Assembly: GCA_016873805.1 (NCBI GenBank)
Contig: VGVZ01000001.1
Span: 1-64,000 of the forward strand
Length of the DNA: 64,000 nucleotides
Source of the DNA: Ignavibacteria bacterium
Lineage (GTDB): Bacteria; Bacteroidota; Ignavibacteria; UBA10030
Reading direction: 5' to 3'
Shown: positions 1-16,294 of the stretch, in pieces
Position numbering within the stretch: position 1 is the stretch's first letter
How the letters are laid out: each line of letters begins with the position of its first letter
Translations under genes and position numbers: made by a program
The notes under the pieces: model-generated
What the model was told of the DNA's origin: nothing
Seen by the model: only the letters and a program-made list of their open reading frames with translations
The model's database searches: none

Positions 1-3000
1 CCCCTTAGGTGCTCTATGCGTACCCCATTCCAGCCACTTATGCTTGATTGGGACCCAACGTTCTAGAAGCTTGCCTTCAACAAACTTCTTTGTATGGACA
101 TCATCCTTCACATTTGAGACAACATCTTCAAGCTCAAACGCTCCCTTGGCAATGTCCTCGTGCGCATGGACAACCATTCCAACGCTTATATAGCAAACAC
201 TTTCCAAAGGAACAGTTTGTACTGCTATCTTTTGTTCTTGATGGTCTTCAGGGAAAAACAATCGATAGGTCAGGTTGCGTTGTTCACCCGTCCCCAACAG
301 CGTTACCTCGCCGAATTCAGGGTAATGAACCCTTCGCTGGGGTTTGTTACGACTTCCATCACTTCTCTGGAACAAATATGTAACATTTCGCACTGCTGCA
401 TCGAAAATTTTGATCTTGCTGAAGAAATCCAGCCGGATGATGCTACTGTTTTGAAGGAACCACCTTTGAGACTTCTCAGCGTATTTCGAGTGACAGTAGG
501 CATCCGATACTATGAGAGTTGAAACACCATTCGGTCGAAGGAGTTTGAAGCTTCGTTCTATAAACGGAATGTACAAGTCCCACTTTTCCCATAGGGTCTC
601 GTACATGTCAGTATCTTCAATTGCCTTTCTCAGTGCCAAATGCTTCGGACCTGAATCGGCTCGCACGTAGGGAGGATTGCCAAGAGTAATATCGAACCCG
701 CTCGTCAGGCTAAACATCCACTCGGCATCGAAGAACTCGGCGTTGGAGTTCTGATCGTAAGGATCCCAGTTTGCCAGTTTGTCCGCCGCGTTCTTGGGAA
801 GTCCGGCTGAATTGACAAGTATGCGGGCGATTTCCTCTCGCAATCGCTTGTCTTCCGATATACATTTCATCTTCTCTTTGCGAGACTTTGCACTAAAATA
901 GTCATGACGGATTTTTTTGAGTCTATCCTCCAACGGATACAACTCAACGGGTTTGATAACGTGTTGAACATCGATTTCCAGTGGTAAAAGCGTGTTTGCC
1001 GCAACGAACTTGGTCTCAAGGTTGGGGAGCGAGAGAACCCCTCGGTTCTCCTTCCTGTCACTCCCTCGCTGGTCAACCAGCAGCGAGACAAAGAACCTGA
1101 GCTTCGCAATCTGCGTGGCAATCGGTTGTATATCCACACCGTAAATGCAGTTCTCAATCAGGTAGAGCTTGCGGCCGTAGTCGGCAAAGTTGTTCTCTTC
1201 GCTGAACGCATCTTCAATCGTCTCCAGCGTTTCCTCGCGAATGGAAGAATCGGTGAGCTGCTCGGCGACTTCGATCTGCTTCTGCTTCCACTTCCTGTTC
1301 TCCGGGTCGAGTTTATGGAGAACATGCACCACCTTGAGCAACACTCCCATCGGGAATGCGCCCGAGCCACAGGCAGGGTCGAGGACCTTCATGGAATGAA
1401 TCGCGGCAACGAGATTGTCTTTCTCTTGGTCCGTGAACACCGGAGGGGTCTCATTGTATCCAACGAGCTTCCGTAACTCAGCTTCCAATGAATCTTCCTT
1501 GTCAACCCATCGGTTTGGTTCGACTTTGCTTTCCAGCTTGAGCTGTCCCTTTCGCGCCTTGTTTCCGAACCCGTCCGTCTGAGCCGTCCCCACTTCCTGA
1601 GTTGCCGGGTTTTCCTGCAACATCTTTGTTTTGAGATACGCGATGAGACTCTCATCCACCATGTAATTCACTATCTCACGCGGCGTGTAGAAACTGCCCG
1701 TCGCTTTGCGTGCCGTTGTGCCTGTCTCCGGGTTATATTCGGCAAGCAGGTTTTCAAATATGCGCCCCAACAGTTCGGGATCGAGGGCAATCTCCTCTTC
1801 CACCGGCGTGTTCTCGGCAATCGTGAACTTGTAGTCGTTCAGAATGTGGATGAGGCCTTTTACCTTGTCCCGTTTGTGTTTCTTGTCGTCGTACACATCG
1901 CTCAGGTCAATCTCCAAGTCCGCTTTTGCTCCGCCGAAGAAGAGAATGTTGGGAACAGTCGGTTGGTTCTTGGCAACACGGGAGAACCCGTCTATCCGGA
2001 TGACCTTCCGTTTGTCGTTTTCATCGGGTTTGTCGAGACAGTCGAAGAGTCCTCCGTTGAGGAACGGAATCGTCGAGAAGAGCTTCAACCCATCATCCGG
2101 GTTTTGGAATGACTCCTTGTACCGATAGAGATTGGTGATGTTGTAGTCATCGGCGTGTCCCCATTGGTCACGTTCATCGGTTGCGAAACGCCTGTTCTCC
2201 GGCTCATCCTTCGTATTCATCTTCTGGTTCAGCGTGGCGAAGAAGAGGTTCTGGAGGATGGCCTTGTAGTAATCGGATCGCTTCTCATCGGAACCGTCGA
2301 ACTTCTTGAGCAGACGGGCAAGTGCTCGCTCGGAAAAGAGATCGTCCGGCACGAGATGTTTCTCTTTGAGGAACCAGACGAATATGAGTCTTGTAAGCAG
2401 TCGGATGACATTGATGGAGTTGTTGACCTTCTTGTCCTTCTTGTCCTTCACGCCCGGAGCTATGGGGAACTCGACGCTCTTCACAGCCCAGAAGTACCAT
2501 GCAGCGATGCGTTTGTAGAATTTCTTGTTCAGTTCCGAGATGTTCAGCGTCGCCCGCCATGCGGCATGCAGCTCAACAAAGTTAGTCGGTGCGTGGATAC
2601 GCGTCAGTTCAGGGAGCGAAAGGTCGAACAGAATCTCGATGTGTGCCCTGTGAGGCGAGGCAATGCTGATATCCTTGATCAGCGTGACCTTCTCCAGCAC
2701 ATCCTTACTTTCATCCCGCTTGTGCAACCGGCGGTCAATCACGGAGAGTGTCAGGGAGTTGCCATACTTGAACAGAATCAACACAGGCATGGGAAAGAGC
2801 CGGTTCACCTCACGGGTAATGTGGCTCAATGCCGTGCGGCTGTACTCTGCCTGCGCAAGCTCGATCACAAAGAACAAATACGTTTCGATGATGGTACGGT
2901 CGACCTGTTTGGTATCAAACAGTGACGTGTTTCGAGAAACCTCCTCTTTGGTGAGTTGGAACAGCAGGTCAACATACTTCCAATCGTTGGCCTGTGCTTT

Positions 3001-3192
3001 CTCTTCGTTGAAACGGGAGCCAGCCTGGATGAACGTCTCTTTGAACTGCGCGTAGGTTGGTTTGTCCAGCGGGGCCTGGCGGTCGGTGGCGTAGCCGAGC
3101 GTTTGGAACAGGCCGAGTGCATTCTTCGTCAGATTGCCCTGCGCGAATGCCTTCAGCGATTGCTCGATTCGTTTCTTGACGTCTTCGTTCAT
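1..3192 (-). CDS. Eco57I-type adenine-specific DNA methyltransferase (3' end cut by window edge)
   Basis: Predicted S-adenosylmethionine-dependent N6-adenine methyltransferase of a restriction-modification or defence locus. The frame is open from the ATG at 3192 to base 1 (1064 codons, no stop), so the C-terminus lies outside the window. Motif I, LDPACGSGAF, begins at residue 604, and the catalytic motif IV, NPPYV, is at 839-843. About 590 residues precede motif I, including a GSFYTPREIVNYM element typical of Eco57I/PglX-like enzymes just before the fold. The region after residue 900 should contain target recognition. I see no convincing PD-(D/E)XK site in the N-terminal part, so cleavage may come from the partner genes. 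The ATG overlaps the stop of the upstream DUF1016 gene (ATGA at 3189-3192), which supports this start and co-translation. Confidence 0.9.
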   Translation of the reverse strand, partial: MNEDVKKRIEQSLKAFAQGNLTKNALGLFQTLGYATDRQAPLDKPTYAQFKETFIQAGSRFNEEKAQANDWKYVDLLFQLTKEEVSRNTSLFDTKQVDRTIIETYLFFVIELAQAEYSRTALSHITREVNRLFPMPVLILFKYGNSLTLSVIDRRLHKRDESKDVLEKVTLIKDISIASPHRAHIEILFDLSLPELTRIHAPTNFVELHAAWRATLNISELNKKFYKRIAAWYFWAVKSVEFPIAPGVKDKKDKKVNNSINVIRLLTRLIFVWFLKEKHLVPDDLFSERALARLLKKFDGSDEKRSDYYKAILQNLFFATLNQKMNTKDEPENRRFATDERDQWGHADDYNITNLYRYKESFQNPDDGLKLFSTIPFLNGGLFDCLDKPDENDKRKVIRIDGFSRVAKNQPTVPNILFFGGAKADLEIDLSDVYDDKKHKRDKVKGLIHILNDYKFTIAENTPVEEEIALDPELLGRIFENLLAEYNPETGTTARKATGSFYTPREIVNYMVDESLIAYLKTKMLQENPATQEVGTAQTDGFGNKARKGQLKLESKVEPNRWVDKEDSLEAELRKLVGYNETPPVFTDQEKDNLVAAIHSMKVLDPACGSGAFPMGVLLKVVHVLHKLDPENRKWKQKQIEVAEQLTDSSIREETLETIEDAFSEENNFADYGRKLYLIENCIYGVDIQPIATQIAKLRFFVSLLVDQRGSDRKENRGVLSLPNLETKFVAANTLLPLEIDVQHVIKPVELYPLEDRLKKIRHDYFSAKSRKEKMKCISEDKRLREEIARILVNSAGLPKNAADKLANWDPYDQNSNAEFFDAEWMFSLTSGFDITLGNPPYVRADSGPKHLALRKAIEDTDMYETLWEKWDLYIPFIERSFKLLRPNGVSTLIVSDAYCHSKYAEKSQRWFLQNSSIIRLDFFSKIKIFDAAVRNVTYLFQRSDGSRNKPQRRVHYPEFGEVTLLGTGEQRNLTYRLFFPEDHQEQKIAVQTVPLESVCYISVGMVVHAHEDIAKGAFELEDVVSNVKDDVHTKKFVEGKLLERWVPIKHKWLEWGTHRAPKG

Positions 3193-4241
3193 CGTTCTTT
3201 CAGTTTCTTTCGTTCCGGTAAGTCGGCCACGGTCTGTTCATAGAACTCGTGGAGCTTCCGGCGGAGAAGTTTCTTGTCGAGCAGTTTTGTCTGGTACTCG
3301 GCAACGAGAGCTGGCGAGAGGGAACGGCTCAGTGCGTACTCGACCACTTCACTATCATTGCTTTTGCAGAGCAATACTCCCACGGAGGGACGCTCGTGCG
3401 GTTTGCGGACATCTCTATCGAGGGCTTCAAGGTAAAACTCCAGCTTGCCCAGGTACTCGGGTTTGAAGTCGTCAATCTTGAGTTCGATGGCAACAAGGCA
3501 ATTGAGCGAGCGATTGAAGAAGAGCAGGTCAATGAAGAAGTCTTTCTTGCCAACATGAATCGGGTACTCGCCGCCGATGAAGCAAAAATCCCGTCCCAAC
3601 TCAATGAGAAAATTCTTGAGGTGTCCGACGAGTCCGTTGTGGAGGTCTGCCTCGGAGTGCGCATCGGGCAAACGGAGGAAGTCAACGATGTACGAATCCT
3701 TAAACACGTCTCCGGCACCGGGATGAAGTTCTCTCATCAGTGGTGAGAGTTTTGGCTTCGCAAGGGCCGCCCGCTCGAACAGGCCGCTGTCGATCTGGCG
3801 TTCAAGTTCACGGCTTGACCAGTTCTCTTTGATGGTGCGGCGGAGGTAGAATTCCCGCTCCTCCGGGGAAACGCATTTCCCAAGGATAAGCATGTTATGC
3901 GTCCAGGTTAGTTCTCTCAGCAGTGCTGAGAGTTTTGTCCTGCCCTTGTATTCCTGGTAAAACTGGCGCATACGCCAGAGATTCTGGGATGAAAAGCCGG
4001 AAGCGTGCGGCTCGTTGCGATGAATGAACGTTGCCAGCGATTGAACGGTCGCCTTCCCCCACCCATCGGATTGTATCTTCTGGCTGATGAACTTGCCGAT
4101 GTTCCAATACAGCGTAATCAACTCGGTATTGACTGCACGGTAGGAGCGAGTCCGGGCTTGCTGGATAAGCGCAATGATCGGCTGGAACGAGCGATGATGC
4201 CTGCCAGTGCTTGAGGATTTCTTTGCAGGCGTTCTCTTCAT
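3189..4241 (-). CDS. DUF1016 / YhcG-type PD-(D/E)XK nuclease
   Basis: Two-domain protein of the DUF1016 (YhcG) family. An N-terminal helical domain (YWNIGKFI, WGKATVQSLA, FSSQNLWRMRQFY) is followed by a PD-(D/E)XK nuclease domain. Counting from the upstream ATG at 4259, the nuclease signature is Asp244 in FFIDLLFFN and Glu259-x-Lys261 in IELKIDDFKPEYLGK, so a catalytically complete site is visible. I chose the ATG at 4241 because it forms a 4-bp ATGA overlap with the helicase stop. The alternative ATG at 4259 adds six residues. Family members often sit inside restriction-modification loci; their exact role is not settled. Here it is sandwiched between helicase and methyltransferase with ATGA junctions on both sides, so it is very probably part of that cassette. 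Confidence 0.88.
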   Translation of the reverse strand: MKRTPAKKSSSTGRHHRSFQPIIALIQQARTRSYRAVNTELITLYWNIGKFISQKIQSDGWGKATVQSLATFIHRNEPHASGFSSQNLWRMRQFYQEYKGRTKLSALLRELTWTHNMLILGKCVSPEEREFYLRRTIKENWSSRELERQIDSGLFERAALAKPKLSPLMRELHPGAGDVFKDSYIVDFLRLPDAHSEADLHNGLVGHLKNFLIELGRDFCFIGGEYPIHVGKKDFFIDLLFFNRSLNCLVAIELKIDDFKPEYLGKLEFYLEALDRDVRKPHERPSVGVLLCKSNDSEVVEYALSRSLSPALVAEYQTKLLDKKLLRRKLHEFYEQTVADLPERKKLKER

Positions 4242-7200
4242 TCGGTGATCACGAGCCATGTCACAAGCTCGAAGTTGTTCAGTTCTTCGACTTGTTTTGA
4301 TTTCGGCATAATGAGACCGCCTCGATCCGTGGTAATCCGTTGTGTCATCTTCTTCTTGAACACACGCACAATCTCCTCCACCGCTTTCTGCAACCGCCCT
4401 GTGTAGGCATCCATCTCTTGTCCGTGTCCGGTCTCCTGGTTAAACAGATCGCACAAGGTCTGGAACGCTTCAGTGCGTCCTTGACACATGAGTCGGTAAA
4501 TCTCGAGTATCTGCTTTGCGTTGGTGTAGTTGAACCGTACCTGGCCGTCATCCCAGATGTAGACGAGAAAGTAGGGCTGGAGGGGGTTCACCTCTTCAGT
4601 GCCGTCGGTATCGCCTTTCTGCTTGAGGCAATAAACGACACCGGGCTTGATGATTGCTTTCTCAGCTTCTGAGAACTTGGCTACGTCGAGAACATCGGCA
4701 TGTTTGCCTGCCGGTGACGGGACCACCGCGTACAAACCAAATGGCGCATCCCTCAATCGTTCCTTGTTTTTTTCGATGTAGTTGGTCAACTCAATGCGGA
4801 AATCGTCGAGCGTGAAGTCGGTGAGGGTAATGCTTTCATTCATCTCTTCGAGATCGAGCACCTCATCCCTCAACCGCTTCAGCTGCTGGTTTCGGTACTT
4901 GAGATCCTCCTCGATCAGTTCCTCCAATTGATCTGTGTTAAGGATGTTGTCCTCACCAGTGGCGGTCACGTCCACCAATGCCATGCGCGCTTCGACACGC
5001 TCCTTCAGGTTGATGTAGTTGTCGAGGTCCTTCGTTGGCCAGAAATTCACAAGCTGAATCTTCTCATTCCTTGTCCCGATGCGGTCGATACGTCCGAATC
5101 GCTGGATGATGCGGACGGGATTCCAATGGATGTCATAGTTGATCACATAGTCACAATCCTGGAGGTTTTGTCCCTCACTGATGCAGTCTGTTGCTATGAG
5201 GATGCTGATTTCATCGTTCTGAGGCATTCCCGAAAGTCGTGCACGGTCTTTTGAGACAGGAGAAAAGTTGGTCAGGATGCTGCCGAAGTCGTTTCTGCCG
5301 AAGGTTGTCTTTGTGAAGCTCCCCGCGACGAGGCCGATGTGCTTCTTCAGATCATCCCTTGCCCAATCCTTGAGACACCTGTACAGGTAGTCGGCAGTGT
5401 CGGCGAAGGCAGTAAACACGATGACCTTATCATTGCTTCCGTTGATGGGATGCTGCATCTTCTTCACGATGTGTTCCTTCAACTCCTTCAGTTTTGCATC
5501 CCGGTCAGGAGTAACGGCGACGGCATTATTGTAGATGATGGAGAGCGCCTGTTTATCGGCATCGAGGTCTTCCAGCCATTCATCGAGTTCGAGATCGGCC
5601 ATGTCGTACGTGAACTTCTTTCCCACCCGCCACTGCTCGAGGTCGTCGGCATTTTCCTCAAACTCATCTTCTTCCGGCTGTGCAGCTCCGAGGTCAATTT
5701 CCTGTCCGTTCGACTTTACACGCTTGAATCCGGCTATGCGGCTTTCCAAGTGTTCGATCTTGCGGATTGTGCGGTCGAGCGAAATCTCAAACGACTCAAT
5801 CGAGCTTTCGAGTCGCTTGAGGTAGTTCACCTTCATCATCCCGATCAGGAAGTGTTCACGATCGCTTTGTGTAAAAGCAAGGACTTCCCGGGCTCCCATT
5901 TCCTCATACTTCTTGCGCTGTTCCGGCTTCACGTAGGCCGATGGGTTAAACACAGAAAGCTTGTACTCAAGAATCTTCTTGTTGAGAGCGTCATACGTGA
6001 AGAAGCGGTCCTTCAAGTCGATGTTCGGGTACACCGCATGAGGTTTCAGACGCTCGGCAAACTGCCCCACTGATTGCACATTGTAGTAGTTCTTCACATG
6101 CTTGCGGCTTCTTGCAATGGTCATCTCATCGAGCAGTTTGAAGAAAGAAGAATCCAATCGTTCCAGCAATTGCCTGACGGTCCGGTTGGTGTTCTTCCGA
6201 TCCGCCCAGTTGGTGAATTGCGTTTGCGCATTTTTCAGGGCAAGCTCGATGTCCTTGATTTGCGTTGCCTCAAACAGTGCATCTTTGCGTCCCTCGGTAA
6301 TGAGCAAGAGTTGATTCCGGAGATCGCGCAGGTTGTTATTAACCGGCGTTGCCGAGAGCAAGAGCACTTTGGTCTTTGTTCCCTCTTTGATGATCTTCTC
6401 CATCAGCCACTTAGCGCGGTTCAGTCGAATCTCGCCATCGTCTGTGACTTTTTCCATCGGGTTGCCACGGAAGTTGTGGCTTTCGTCTATGACTACAAGG
6501 TCATAAGCGCCCCAGTTGAAATGCTCAAGGTCAATTCCGTTTGCATCAGAGATACCCTGCACTCGCCCCATATCTGTGTGGTACAGGATGGTGTAATTGA
6601 ACCGGTCGTTGCGAAATGGGTTGAGAATACTGTTTTGTGCAGCTTGATAGACCGTCCAGTTGGCTGCCAGCTTCTTCGGGACCAAGACCAGGACGCGACA
6701 GTTCAACAACTCAAAATAGCGGATGACAGCTAGCGCTTCGAACGTCTTCCCCAAGCCGACGCTGTCGGCGATGATACAGCCATTGTGTTTGAGGATCTTA
6801 TTGATTGCTCCCTTGACACCATCCCGCTGGAAGTCGTACAACATGTTCCAGATTTCGCTTTCGAAGAAACCGATCTGTCTATTAAGCAAGCCACCTTTGT
6901 CCTGTTCACTGAGGAACTTCTCAAAGATGTGATAGAGCGTCTTGTAGTAGATGAACTCTGGTTCATTCTCCACATAGAACTGATCGAGATACTTGAGCAC
7001 CTGCTCCTTCACATCCTCTACCAACCCATCCTGATTGTTCCAAATGCTGTTGAACCATTCTTCAAGCTCGTTGGCATCCCGCCGATCCTGGATGACCATA
7101 TTCAATTCGATGTTGTGCCGACCGCCCAAACCGAGTCCGCTCACGGTGAAATTGGAGCTCCCCATGATAGACTCTTTTGTCCCATTTGGGTTTTCCAGAT

Positions 7201-7570
7201 GGTAGAGCTTTCCGTGCAGGAAGTTCGGCTTGACCATCGATTTGATGTCCACCTTCTCTTTAATCCATCCGACACATTCCTTGGCAATCGCTTTCTGGGT
7301 CATCCTATTCTCGATCGGAACGACCAGTTGATCATCCTCGATCTTGAATTCACGGCGATTCGTCTTTGAAGGGTCAATGGAATTGATGAATCGAGGTTCA
7401 CCAAAGAGGAAGCGCAACCGCTCGATCCGTTCAAGTTGAGACTTCAATTGTTGGTAGGCGTAGATGGTGAAGTAAGCGGAAACAAAGGAAAGTTTCGAAC
7501 CGGGTTGAATTACGGTCTTCAGGAAATCGCCGACCGTTCCTTTGGTGTAGTTATCTCGTAATGCACTCAT
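4238..7570 (-). CDS. PLD-nuclease / SF2 helicase fusion protein
   Basis: A 1110-residue protein joining an N-terminal phospholipase-D-like nuclease domain to an SNF2-like superfamily 2 helicase. The PLD half-site is His119-x-Lys121 (FLHGKLY) followed by GSSNFTVSGLG at 137-147; a single HxK suggests the active site forms by dimerisation. Helicase motifs in order are Walker A VGLGKT (271-276), DESH (362-365), LLSATP (404-409) and motif VI QRFGRIDRIG (823-832). A charged insert lies between the two RecA folds, and a long C-terminal domain of unknown role follows. It is the first gene of a coupled trio with the DUF1016 nuclease and the methyltransferase. Inference: an ATP-driven translocase-nuclease acting on unmodified DNA. 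No strong Shine-Dalgarno is visible before the ATG. Confidence 0.9.
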   Translation of the reverse strand: MSALRDNYTKGTVGDFLKTVIQPGSKLSFVSAYFTIYAYQQLKSQLERIERLRFLFGEPRFINSIDPSKTNRREFKIEDDQLVVPIENRMTQKAIAKECVGWIKEKVDIKSMVKPNFLHGKLYHLENPNGTKESIMGSSNFTVSGLGLGGRHNIELNMVIQDRRDANELEEWFNSIWNNQDGLVEDVKEQVLKYLDQFYVENEPEFIYYKTLYHIFEKFLSEQDKGGLLNRQIGFFESEIWNMLYDFQRDGVKGAINKILKHNGCIIADSVGLGKTFEALAVIRYFELLNCRVLVLVPKKLAANWTVYQAAQNSILNPFRNDRFNYTILYHTDMGRVQGISDANGIDLEHFNWGAYDLVVIDESHNFRGNPMEKVTDDGEIRLNRAKWLMEKIIKEGTKTKVLLLSATPVNNNLRDLRNQLLLITEGRKDALFEATQIKDIELALKNAQTQFTNWADRKNTNRTVRQLLERLDSSFFKLLDEMTIARSRKHVKNYYNVQSVGQFAERLKPHAVYPNIDLKDRFFTYDALNKKILEYKLSVFNPSAYVKPEQRKKYEEMGAREVLAFTQSDREHFLIGMMKVNYLKRLESSIESFEISLDRTIRKIEHLESRIAGFKRVKSNGQEIDLGAAQPEEDEFEENADDLEQWRVGKKFTYDMADLELDEWLEDLDADKQALSIIYNNAVAVTPDRDAKLKELKEHIVKKMQHPINGSNDKVIVFTAFADTADYLYRCLKDWARDDLKKHIGLVAGSFTKTTFGRNDFGSILTNFSPVSKDRARLSGMPQNDEISILIATDCISEGQNLQDCDYVINYDIHWNPVRIIQRFGRIDRIGTRNEKIQLVNFWPTKDLDNYINLKERVEARMALVDVTATGEDNILNTDQLEELIEEDLKYRNQQLKRLRDEVLDLEEMNESITLTDFTLDDFRIELTNYIEKNKERLRDAPFGLYAVVPSPAGKHADVLDVAKFSEAEKAIIKPGVVYCLKQKGDTDGTEEVNPLQPYFLVYIWDDGQVRFNYTNAKQILEIYRLMCQGRTEAFQTLCDLFNQETGHGQEMDAYTGRLQKAVEEIVRVFKKKMTQRITTDRGGLIMPKSKQVEELNNFELVTWLVITE

Positions 7571-13303: not shown

Positions 13304-15622
13304 CTACATCAATCTCGCGGCTGAAAGCGTCACGACGTACTGTGACGGCGCCATAAACCTACGCGTCAGGTCAACTCTGAGCAATCCAAAGAGCCGGCTG
13401 ATGCCGATACCCCCCTCAACGTACCAGCCGTCTGTCGGGTGACCGTAGATCGAATGTCTTTCGGAGCGGGTCCAGGAGCGCGCCGCGGCTCCATGAATCA
13501 CCAGTTCGATGTTCCGCTTATAGAGGTACGGAATGTTCAGTGCGAGCATCGGGATCGATCGGAAATTGTGCTCCAGCGAAATCATCACAAACTGTTCCCC
13601 CGAAAACTCCCTCACCTCCATCCCACGCATGACGCCGAACGGACCGAACCCCGTGCCGCCGGACTCCAAACTGAACATCCGTTGTGGCGGAAGAGCTCCA
13701 TTCGAGAGGCCGACGACAACTCGCGCGCTCAACAGCGGATGGAAGAGGTTCCTCCTGAGGAATGTCGCAAGATGGATCTCACCCCGCACCACGCCGCGCG
13801 TGAATCCGGATGAACCCGTGAGAATGCCCTTCGCGGCGGTCTCGAGCTCAAGTTCAAAATGATCGACCGGTATGAGATTTATGGCGATTGGATCCTGACC
13901 AATCCTTCCCTTGAATGTGACCGTACGGAGCATCCCCTCGTCGGCAAGTGGATTGTCCCGATAGCGATGCTTGCGGTAGAACAGACTGAAGTCGGTCCGC
14001 TTCTCCGCAACTCCATGACGCTCGGCCCGATACGTCAGCGTCGCCGAGAGTATTCGGAGCGGGCGCACTCGCGCCGATGCACTCCACCCCTCGGCATAGC
14101 AGTAGTCACGGCGGTCGTTCTTCGCGAAGAGTGCGGAGGCGGTGACCATGAACGTTCCCACCAGCCCGTCCTCATAGAAGTAGTCGATGTCCCGATAGAG
14201 GTCAAAGCCCACGCTGATCTTCCGGCCGCTGTCCGCGAACAGTGTGAACCCGAGTGATCCTTTTGTCTTTCGATCGGCAAATCCGTAGCCAAGCTTGGCG
14301 CGTACACCGAGCCAGGAGATCACCGAATCGCGTTTCAGATCGATGCCGCCGAAGAATCCCTCAACTCGATTGAACCGGACATCGAGAATCCGGATGACCG
14401 ACTGTACGGGTCCACCGAGAAATGAGAGAGGTCCCTTCGGCTCAAATTGCCGTTGCAGAGTCTGCGTGCTATCGAGCGTGATGTACGCGTGCCGTTCCTC
14501 CGATGTCAGCGGAAGAACTTCGGTTCGTGTCCAGAAGAGCGAATCGTAGACTTCGGCCTCAGGTGCTTTGGTGCGCCGAGCTCTGAGCCGCATGGTATCG
14601 GGAAATTCGGCGTTGATCCGGTAGTCGTAGATGACTGATGTCTGGTCGAACCCGATCCTGGGAAAGGTGAAACCGGCGATTCCGATATTCATCAATGCCT
14701 TCACGCGTATGTCGACCGGCATCCAGTACATCTCATGGTAGAGGTCAAACTGTTGGGCGTAACGAACATCCAGCTCATCGACAAAGGGAATCGCATACGC
14801 CTCGTTCGGCGTCACCTCGACGCTTGTGAGCGCGTAGACGTCTCCCGCCACGCTCAGGGTTCCCCGGAAGAGCGGAACCAAACGGCTCCGTGGTATGATC
14901 TGGATGGTGTATATCGGAATGCCGTCGCGCGCTCTCGTTTCCAATAGCTTGAATCGGTAGTAATCGAATGTCTCCCTTGACGTCGGCCCCACAAAATTGA
15001 ACCCGCTGAACCGGATGTTGTCGTCGTAGAAATTCGCAATCCCCCCGACGGCGGCGAAGTTCTGACTTCCCTGAATATTCTCCGTCTGACGTTGTTGACG
15101 AACGATTTCCCTGAGCGTGTCTCCCTGTTGCCAGTAACCGGTTGTGTACGATTCCGAAATCATCGCGATGATCGTATCGCGCTTCATGCTCTGGCGCGTG
15201 AACGCATCGAACTGGTATGACCGGAGCATTTCTTTCCATCGTCCCTTGTTCTCGATGACTTTCCTCATGATCGCATACGCGGGATCTTCATCTGTGACAA
15301 CGACCTCGCCAAGCACAATCGGGACCGGTGTGAGTCGAACCTCCTCCTGACGATCCGCGCTCAGTGTGACACGGATCGTGTTGGGTTGATAACCGACGAA
15401 GCTGAAGATGATCGCGTACTCTCCCGGAGGGAGCGTGAACCGATAGAAACCATCGGCGTTGGTGATGGTGCCGCGTGTCGTGCCATCCACGCGGATGTTT
15501 GCCGCGGGAAGAGGATCGTTCGTTGAAGCGTCTCTCACGGTGCCGAAGAGTGTCAGCGTTTGGGAAAGGGCGACAGAACAGAACAGTAGTGAACTACCAA
15601 GGAGTATTCTGAAAGAAGTCAT
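13304..15622 (-). CDS. DUF5686 outer-membrane protein with carboxypeptidase-regulatory-like domain
   Basis: A 772-residue envelope protein. The start at 15622 gives a signal peptide (FRILLGSSLLFCSVALSQ). The earlier in-frame ATG at 15742 adds 40 residues without any signal feature. Residues ~22-100 form a CarboxypepD_reg-like beta-sandwich (GTVRDASTNDPLPAANIRVDG, GFYRFTLPPGEY). The family hallmark EDPAYAIMRKVIENK follows near residue 125, and the remainder looks like a long beta-barrel, ending in YVVTLSAARLM. DUF5686 proteins are common in Bacteroidota and of unknown function. No partner gene is coupled: the next gene downstream is 30 bp away. Confidence 0.85.
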   Translation of the reverse strand: MTSFRILLGSSLLFCSVALSQTLTLFGTVRDASTNDPLPAANIRVDGTTRGTITNADGFYRFTLPPGEYAIIFSFVGYQPNTIRVTLSADRQEEVRLTPVPIVLGEVVVTDEDPAYAIMRKVIENKGRWKEMLRSYQFDAFTRQSMKRDTIIAMISESYTTGYWQQGDTLREIVRQQRQTENIQGSQNFAAVGGIANFYDDNIRFSGFNFVGPTSRETFDYYRFKLLETRARDGIPIYTIQIIPRSRLVPLFRGTLSVAGDVYALTSVEVTPNEAYAIPFVDELDVRYAQQFDLYHEMYWMPVDIRVKALMNIGIAGFTFPRIGFDQTSVIYDYRINAEFPDTMRLRARRTKAPEAEVYDSLFWTRTEVLPLTSEERHAYITLDSTQTLQRQFEPKGPLSFLGGPVQSVIRILDVRFNRVEGFFGGIDLKRDSVISWLGVRAKLGYGFADRKTKGSLGFTLFADSGRKISVGFDLYRDIDYFYEDGLVGTFMVTASALFAKNDRRDYCYAEGWSASARVRPLRILSATLTYRAERHGVAEKRTDFSLFYRKHRYRDNPLADEGMLRTVTFKGRIGQDPIAINLIPVDHFELELETAAKGILTGSSGFTRGVVRGEIHLATFLRRNLFHPLLSARVVVGLSNGALPPQRMFSLESGGTGFGPFGVMRGMEVREFSGEQFVMISLEHNFRSIPMLALNIPYLYKRNIELVIHGAAARSWTRSERHSIYGHPTDGWYVEGGIGISRLFGLLRVDLTRRFMAPSQYVVTLSAARLM

Positions 15623-15835
15623 CTGATGTCGAAGGACTAACCTTTGGTATTGAACGACGCCTGGAGCGCGGGCGAATGCCTCTAAAGCACCACTACGCTC
15701 CGTGGGCATACTGACAGTTCGTTTTGCGAGGTTCAGCGGCAAAGGTCCAGTCGGCCAACGGGTGCTGCCCGCGTATCACGGTGTCTACCATTAGACCCAA
15801 CGAGCGAAGTGTCACTTCGTTCTACAGGTACAACT

Positions 15836-16294
15836 GGGGTGTCACGGTCTATACCAGGGCATCTCCCGGGGTGTCACGGTCCATACTGTAGCAGCCCAGA
15901 GGGCGAAGCAACGCTTCGCCCTACGCGTTCTCCCGGGGTGTCCCGGTCCATACCGTGACACCCCGGGGGCGAGCAGCGCTTCGCTCTACGCATTCGTCGA
16001 TTTCCCGGGGTGTCCCCGTCCATACCGTGACACCCCGGGGGCGAAGCAACGCTTCGCCCCACGCATTCGTCGATCTCTCGGGGTGTCCCCGTCCATACCA
16101 TGACACCCCGGGGGCGAGCAGCGCTTCGCTCTACGCATTCGTCGATTTCCCGGGGTGTCCCCGTCCATACCGTGACACCCCGGGGGCGAAGCAACGCTTC
16201 GCCCTACGCATTCGTCGATCTCTCGGGGTGTCCCGGTCCATACCGTGACACCCCGGGGGCGAGCAGCGCTTCACCCTACGTATTCGTCGATTTC
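15836..16294. repeat. Tandem array of paired-hairpin units (72/73 bp, alternating A/B)
   Basis: Five regular units begin at 15957, 16029, 16102, 16174 and 16247, spaced 72, 73, 72 and 73 bp. They alternate two versions, so the true period is a 145-bp dimer. Each unit holds CCCGGGGTGTC and its exact complement GACACCCCGGG around a 14-nt loop. In B units a second hairpin follows, GGGCGAAGC-AAC-GCTTCGCCC. Decayed copies continue leftwards to about 15836. The last unit runs into the 3' end of the Fe-S gene: bases 16276-16294 match 15986-16004 at 18 of 19 positions, exactly 290 bp apart. Confidence 0.9.

What the first reader, a model, noticed from the sequence alone, without database searches (positions are those of the whole stretch)
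1..7570. Three-gene PLD-helicase / DUF1016 nuclease / Eco57I methyltransferase cassette
Three large nucleic-acid enzymes sit head to tail with exact ATGA overlaps at both junctions (4238-4241 and 3189-3192). The helicase carries a PLD nuclease half-site (HGK) and the DUF1016 protein a complete PD-(D/E)XK site, so two different nucleases are paired with one adenine methyltransferase. That is more than a simple Type II system and does not match the gene order I know for BREX, DISARM or Type I loci. Inference: an ATP-dependent defence system in which modification by the methyltransferase protects host DNA.
Basis: partly seen in the sequence, partly recalled or inferred. Interest (0 to 1): 0.62.

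Follow-up and report, generated by a model that had tools for sequence, protein, structure and literature searches.

The report
Two-gene motor-nuclease restriction system with cargo
These genes are most likely a DNA-protection system in which one protein marks the cell's own DNA and a motor protein with a built-in cutter destroys unmarked DNA; the pair recurs in about 20 bacterial phyla but is barely described, while the third gene is a passenger often slipped in between.

Summary
In detail: three '-' strand genes, exact ATGA overlaps, intact PLD half-site, SNF2 motor, PD-(D/E)XK site and adenine-methyltransferase motifs. The methyltransferase is cut off because the window starts at a contig end.

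The reading as a three-gene unit does not hold. The conserved unit is two genes: PLD-SNF2 helicase plus a methyltransferase whose N-terminus is a DUF4391 domain. In 63 of the 80 nearest methyltransferase loci (about 20 phyla) the helicase lies upstream: 35 join directly, 28 carry something between, DUF1016 nine times, otherwise RhuM, KilA-N, AlbA_2, Fic and others. The window's DUF1016 groups with copies in Type I hsd operons; DUF1016 entered the slot several times.

Best explanation: an ATP-dependent restriction-modification system, like a Type ISP enzyme split in two with a PLD nuclease. Main support: PLD residues are invariant in 61/61 helicases of this system, but lost in all 17 sister helicases that sit beside a Type III system with its own nuclease; motor motifs are kept in both. 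The recognition domain is hypervariable and uncoupled from the otherwise co-diverging pair.

A distant version was noted on a Lactococcus plasmid in 2018. No activity was tested. Verdict: new variant of a known kind.

The parts
4238..7570 (-). PLD-SNF2 helicase-nuclease (1110 aa), first gene of the operon
7031..7570 (-). N-terminal PLD nuclease half-site domain (about residues 1-180)
   Evidence: Pfam PLDc_2 and RE_NgoFVII; profile match to BfiI, PDB 2c1l
7208..7216 (-). PLD catalytic HGK, residues 119-121
   Evidence: 61/61 conserved in the two-gene system; lost in 17/17 Type III-associated sisters
7145..7162 (-). PLD GSSNFT, residues 137-142
4799..6907 (-). SNF2/SF2 motor (about residues 222-924), Walker A at 6743-6757, DESH at 6476-6487
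4238..4241 (-). ATGA stop/start overlap, helicase to DUF1016
3189..4259 (-). DUF1016/YhcG PD-(D/E)XK nuclease, cargo gene in the slot (probable start 4241)
3477..3530 (-). PD-(D/E)XK residues D244, E259 and K261
3189..3192 (-). ATGA stop/start overlap, DUF1016 to methyltransferase
1..3192 (-). DUF4391-Eco57I-type adenine methyltransferase (1064 aa seen, cut by the contig end)
2545..3003 (-). DUF4391-like N-terminal domain, inferred docking module for the helicase
   Evidence: hhalign probability 95, E 2.5e-8; Pfam DUF4391 in 22 of 25 members at E<0.01
643..1785 (-). Methyltransferase core: motif I DPACGSG at 1360-1380, motif IV NPPY at 667-678
1..642 (-). Start of the target recognition domain, truncated at the contig end

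Best explanation
It is an ATP-dependent restriction-modification operon. The methyltransferase recognises an asymmetric site through its C-terminal recognition domain and methylates adenine, protecting host DNA. On unmodified foreign DNA it engages the PLD-SNF2 helicase, probably through its N-terminal DUF4391 domain. The motor then moves along double-stranded DNA, and the PLD half-sites, which pair to form one active site, cut when translocating complexes meet or stall. It works like a Type ISP enzyme split into two polypeptides, with a BfiI/CglI-type PLD nuclease replacing the Mrr-type one. DUF1016 is an accessory second nuclease carried as cargo, possibly a backup or abortive effector. Shown by sequence: gene order, co-divergence, catalytic motifs, domain identities and cargo mobility. 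Inferred: methylation, docking through DUF4391, translocation, cleavage, phage defence and the role of DUF1016.
For: Helicase upstream of the methyltransferase in 63 of the 80 nearest loci, in about 20 phyla; 35 with no gene between. Helicase and methyltransferase core co-diverge (Mantel r=0.56, p=0.0002), while the recognition domain does not follow either (r about 0; mean identity 24% against 51% for the core and 57% for the helicase), the signature of a changing specificity module. PLD catalytic residues invariant 61/61, and 3/3 in divergent two-gene loci, but lost in 17/17 sister helicases that accompany Type III Mod+Res, with Walker A and DESH intact: the PLD is kept where no other core nuclease exists. 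DUF4391 accompanies this helicase family as a separate gene in the sister system and as a fusion here. The methyltransferase model aligns over residues 182-989 with Type ISP LlaBIII and LlaGI (Z 22), BrxX (Z 25) and CamA (Z 27); the helicase motor aligns with SNF2 dsDNA translocases (Z about 18). Short ATGA overlaps recur.
Against: No activity, methylation or phage phenotype has been measured for any member. The window methyltransferase is incomplete, so an intact recognition domain is not shown. Six Poribacteria loci carry the methyltransferase with no helicase within 10 kb upstream, so it can occur alone. The 80 loci are the nearest relatives of a capped scan, not a random sample. That the PLD cleaves DNA is inferred from BfiI and CglI.
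Confidence: 0.77

Rival explanations
1. A true three-subunit system: the DUF1016 nuclease is the essential restriction subunit, and the PLD half-site only assists.
For: ATGA overlaps on both sides in the window; DUF1016 in the same slot in nine other GTDB loci and in L038.
Against: 35 of 63 loci have no insert; the slot also holds RhuM, KilA-N, AlbA_2, Fic/ORF6N, Uma2, VapBC; DUF1016 entered several times and groups with Type I copies; the PLD site is invariant whether or not DUF1016 is present.
Confidence: 0.08
2. A Pgl/BREX-like or modification-dependent defence that attacks DNA because it is methylated, or blocks phage replication without cutting.
For: The methyltransferase fold is close to BrxX (Z 24.9), and BREX protects without an obvious cut.
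Against: No PglZ in the locus (the single PglZ match is a 555-aa ORF on another contig); scores far below PglX cut-offs (41.9 against 500 bits); strict conservation of a nuclease site that is lost when another nuclease is present.
Confidence: 0.08
3. Not mainly defence: a methyltransferase for gene regulation or phase variation with a helicase used in DNA repair.
For: Methyltransferases without a helicase upstream in Poribacteria; inverted recognition-domain copies in some relatives suggest variable methylation.
Against: Sporadic presence, absent in the four sampled genomes of its own family; plasmid and viral-contig relatives; neighbours typical of defence islands.
Confidence: 0.04
4. In this genome the locus is a decaying or truncated copy.
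For: The methyltransferase stops at the contig end, and a 53-aa C-terminal remnant sits near the start of contig C28.
Against: All three frames are open and every catalytic motif is intact; relatives also carry C-terminal remnants downstream beside intact genes.
Confidence: 0.06

Closest known systems
Putative restriction-modification operon orf33-orf34 on Lactococcus plasmid pLd8 (PMC6098607, 2018)
   Same: PLD + SNF2 + helicase-C protein beside a Type IIG-like adenine methyltransferase that lacks a nuclease domain; the authors also suspected the PLD as the nuclease. A Lactococcus relative in this layout (L057) has the PLD motif and an Eco57I methyltransferase.
   Different: Distant (Lactococcus methyltransferases about 27% identical); no DUF4391 match in the L057 methyltransferase, no DUF1016; never characterised or generalised there.
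Type ISP restriction-modification (LlaGI, LlaBIII)
   Same: SF2 translocase coupled to a gamma-class adenine methyltransferase with C-terminal recognition domain; fold match Z 22 over residues 182-989; expected one-strand methylation and collision-dependent cutting.
   Different: Type ISP is one polypeptide with an Mrr-type nuclease (PMC4666363); here there are two polypeptides, a PLD nuclease, a SNF2-type motor and a DUF4391 domain.
CglI / NgoAVII ATP-dependent restriction endonucleases
   Same: A PLD nuclease working with an SF2 helicase-like ATPase; dimerised half-sites give one active site (PMC5737866).
   Different: There the PLD nuclease carries a B3 DNA-binding domain and is separate from the helicase, which has a Z1 domain.
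DISARM class 1
   Same: SNF2-like helicase, adenine methyltransferase and PLD activity.
   Different: No DUF1998 protein found in the genome; PLD fused to the helicase; score 140 bits against a DrmD cut-off of 610.
BREX-related Type-2 BR systems (PMC12839542)
   Same: HKD nuclease fused N-terminally to a Swi2/Snf2 helicase, with an adenine methyltransferase.
   Different: Defined by a DUF499 ATPase and DUF3780; neither is between the two genes nor among the flanking proteins examined here.
PADLOC models C3a139 (HKD+Snf2), PDC-S02, REase_MTase_IIG
   Same: Best library matches of the three proteins.
   Different: Separate single-protein models; the matches do not place the trio in one named system.

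Membership tests
Type ISP restriction-modification | ATP-dependent SF2 translocase coupled to gamma-class adenine methyltransferase and C-terminal recognition domain | tested here: met
   by sequence and fold only
Type ISP restriction-modification | All activities in a single polypeptide | tested here: not met
   two separate genes in the window and in 63 relatives
Type ISP restriction-modification | N-terminal Mrr-type PD-(D/E)XK nuclease on the motor | tested here: not met
   the motor carries a PLD domain
Type I restriction-modification | Separate HsdS specificity subunit and HsdR with PD-(D/E)XK nuclease | tested here: not met
   recognition domain fused to the methyltransferase; PLD-SNF2 protein in place of HsdR
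Type IIG restriction-modification | Nuclease and methyltransferase in one chain | tested here: inconclusive
   PADLOC assigns the methyltransferase to REase_MTase_IIG; the N-terminal domain is DUF4391, in which no nuclease motif was recognised, but its fold was not searched alone
Type III restriction-modification | Mod (N6_N4_Mtase) plus Res with endonuclease domain | tested here: not met
   present in the sister system only
DISARM | DUF1998 protein DrmB and helicase DrmA | tested here: not met
   no MZB/DUF1998 match in the 99% complete genome, control rings in 8 of 14; DrmD score 140 of 610 bits
BREX | PglZ and BrxC with PglX | tested here: not met
   PglX score 41.9 of 500 bits; the only PglZ match is a 555-aa ORF on contig C12; BrxC not searched
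BREX-related Type-2 BR | DUF499 ATPase and DUF3780 | tested here: inconclusive
   absent among flanking proteins scanned, but the sequence downstream of the window is missing and the genome was not searched for them
Lactococcus pLd8-type two-gene operon | PLD-SNF2 helicase immediately followed by a IIG-like adenine methyltransferase without a nuclease domain | tested here: met
   description; L057, L056 and L055 share the layout and PLD motif
DUF1016/YhcG nuclease family | DUF1016_N plus YhcG_C with D-(D/E)xK | tested here: met

The most novel reading that the evidence does not exclude
A widespread, uncatalogued class of ATP-dependent restriction-modification: PLD-SNF2 translocase plus DUF4391-methyltransferase, whose helicase family has a second life beside Type III Mod/Res with its nuclease site dead. 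In it the recognition domain is exchanged (tandem methyltransferases, inverted copies, C-terminal remnants) and the helicase-methyltransferase junction is a landing slot for the same kind of accessory genes that sit in Type I operons.
Probability: 0.5. Interest if true: 0.62.

Novelty: new variant of a known kind. Interest (0 to 1): 0.5.

Why it matters
The pair occurs in about 20 phyla, yet no model in the libraries searched names it as a system; annotation splits it into a 'Type IIG' enzyme, an HKD+Snf2 helicase and a solo DUF1016 candidate. If confirmed, it adds a PLD-based, two-subunit design to ATP-dependent restriction. The live/dead PLD contrast between the two sister systems makes a clean test of which part cuts and whether DUF4391 docks the motor. 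It also suggests that DUF1016, RhuM and KilA-N defence candidates should be read as cargo of restriction operons rather than as fixed subunits.

Tried and rejected
Rejected: a conserved three-gene unit. Rejected: the plasmid helicase relatives at about 42% as the same system; those examined are PLD-dead helicase + DUF4391 + Type III Mod + Res.

Led nowhere: searching the own genome with the window's first 160 bases for an overlapping contig end found none. A search with a relative's methyltransferase C-terminus found only short remnants on C28 and C23, so the missing part of the gene was not recovered, and joining C1 to C28 remains a guess. Proteins of C28 gave one match among the relatives, DUF4238 beside L066. 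No solved structure matches DUF1016 by sequence. The whole-model fold search was dominated by the methyltransferase core, so DUF4391 remains without a fold assignment. Literature searches found one paper mentioning DUF4391, on an unrelated subject by its title and abstract, and nothing on a Type III system with a PLD-dead SNF2 helicase; only open-licence papers were searched.

Weak: no long inverted repeats were found around the methyltransferase in L036, L039 or L052, so DNA inversion is supported only by reversed recognition-domain pieces in L052, L057, L150 and L151.

Full report
What is there. The window is base 1 onward of contig C1 of a 3.2 Mb, 60-contig genome. On the minus strand lie a 1110-aa PLD-SNF2 helicase (4238-7570), a DUF1016/YhcG protein (3189-4259; the probable start at 4241 gives the ATGA overlap) and an Eco57I-type adenine methyltransferase (1-3192), the last cut off by the contig end. 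Both ATGA overlaps are real. Pfam, PADLOC and NCBIfam identify all three proteins but no named system: the best PADLOC models are C3a139 'HKD+Snf2', PDC-S02 and REase_MTase_IIG, and DISARM and BREX scores lie far under their NCBIfam cut-offs.

The conserved unit. In 63 of these the helicase lies upstream on the same strand, in about 20 phyla; in 35 of the 63 the gap is 120 bases or less. Of the 17 others, ten are cut by a contig start, one has the helicase downstream, and six Poribacteria loci lack it within 10 kb upstream. Across 27 loci, helicase identity follows methyltransferase-core identity (Mantel r 0.56, p 0.0002) but not recognition-domain identity (r about 0), which averages 24% against 51% for the core. 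This is what a restriction pair with an exchanging specificity domain should look like.

The middle gene. In 28 of the 63 loci the gap is longer, and most of these hold one or more genes. DUF1016 is the commonest occupant (nine, plus the window and L038). Others are SLFN_AlbA_2, KilA-N, RhuM, Fic with ORF6N, Uma2, a VapBC-like pair and Y1 transposases. Of the five closest plasmid relatives of the window's DUF1016 whose neighbourhoods I read, four lie inside Type I hsd operons, next to S and R or between M and S. In a tree of 25 DUF1016 proteins the 'slot' label needs at least six changes on well-supported branches, and the window copy falls in a 100/99 clade with the Type I copies. DUF1016 is therefore cargo with an intact nuclease site, not a fixed subunit. 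One association of the family with a Type I cluster was noted in 2005 (PMC1189080).

DUF4391 as a likely docking module. The methyltransferase N-terminus (about residues 64-216) matches stand-alone DUF4391 proteins (hhalign probability 95, E 2.5e-8), and 22 of 25 family members hit Pfam DUF4391 at E<0.01 (the window's own score, 27.1 bits, is just under the curated cut-off of 29.9). The stand-alone proteins come from a sister system, seen on plasmids and in genomes of the same phylum: SNF2 helicase, DUF4391, Type III Mod, Type III Res. DUF4391 thus accompanies this helicase family either as a neighbour or fused to the partner. That it docks the motor is inferred from this pattern.

Which part cuts. 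In the two-gene system the PLD residues H119, K121, S138 and N140 are invariant in 61 of 61 helicases and in three very divergent two-gene helicases. In 17 of 17 sister helicases, from loci of the Type III Mod/Res layout, the HxK motif is gone, while Walker A and DESH remain. The two groups are separate clades (SH-aLRT 96 and 99). The PLD site is kept where no other core nuclease exists and lost where Res supplies one. The PLD region matches BfiI (PDB 2c1l) and Pfam's NgoFVII PLD family.

Working model. AlphaFold models (mean pLDDT 81.6 and 79.6) align the methyltransferase over residues 182-989 with the coupler and methyltransferase of LlaBIII and LlaGI (Z 22), with BrxX (Z 25) and CamA (Z 27), and the helicase motor with SNF2 dsDNA translocases (Z about 18). 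Type ISP enzymes cut when two translocating enzymes collide (PMC4666363), and CglI shows that PLD half-sites can be driven by an SF2 ATPase (PMC5737866). The most economical model is a split Type ISP-like enzyme with a PLD nuclease. Translocation, cleavage, methylation and defence are inferred, not shown.

Changing specificity. Contig ends pile up at the 3' end of the methyltransferase: 13 in the 2-3 kb bin downstream of the anchor, against 0-6 in the other bins; the window is another case. L086 carries three tandem methyltransferases with near-identical N-termini; the two whose ends are seen differ in their recognition domains. Reversed recognition-domain pieces lie after the gene in L052, L057, L150 and L151, with a serine invertase beside it in L057. 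Short C-terminal remnants lie downstream in several loci and never upstream (12 hits at E<0.01, the weakest two doubtful). In the own genome a 53-aa remnant lies near the start of contig C28 among defence candidates. Recognition-domain exchange is likely in the family; for the window itself it is only suggested.

What is known. A 2018 study of a Lactococcus plasmid described a PLD/SNF2 protein next to a IIG-like methyltransferase, suspected the PLD as the nuclease and compared the pair with DISARM (PMC6098607). BREX-related Type-2 systems also use an HKD-Swi2/Snf2 effector, but with DUF499 and DUF3780 (PMC12839542). I found no paper on the family as treated here or on the dead-PLD Type III variant; the library holds only open-licence papers.

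Verdict. Observation confirmed; interpretation partly supported; a new variant of a known kind. Confidence 0.77 in the two-gene restriction-modification reading.

Noticed in passing
L032 8007-17358, L031, L029, L030, L033; L040-L050: Sister system: SNF2 helicase with a dead PLD site, stand-alone DUF4391, Type III Mod and Res, on plasmids from Gammaproteobacteria, a Leuconostoc and an archaeon and in genomes of the window's phylum; sometimes with DUF1016 between Mod and Res.
   Followed up: partly
L165 (own contig C28) 97-4033: A 53-aa remnant of this methyltransferase's C-terminus (966-1127) beside an unknown 300-aa ORF, a PDC-M41A-like protein, DUF5131 (PDC-M41B) and DUF4238; perhaps the missing downstream side of the window's operon.
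   Followed up: partly
L086 9998-22807: Three tandem methyltransferases with near-identical N-termini and differing recognition domains, separated by a repeated 190-aa ORF.
   Followed up: partly
L151 10918-11709, L150 11354-11746, L052 14267-14569, L057 8763-9557: Reversed recognition-domain pieces after the methyltransferase; in L057 next to a Mpi-type serine recombinase.
   Followed up: partly
L081, L083, L087, L091, L105, L106: Poribacteria loci with the methyltransferase but no helicase within 10 kb upstream; two of them (L087, L106) have a large protein and an AAA-like ATPase downstream.
   Followed up: partly
L101 13935-15458, L118 13690-15366, L071 13748-15601: An SMC/AAA_15-type ATPase directly downstream of the methyltransferase, weakly like MADS mad3 or GajA.
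   Followed up: no
window 15874-16248: Overlapping ORFs on both strands with a repeated 'TPRG' / 'HTVTPRG' theme, upstream of the gene at 13304-15742; looks like a tandem repeat.
   Followed up: no
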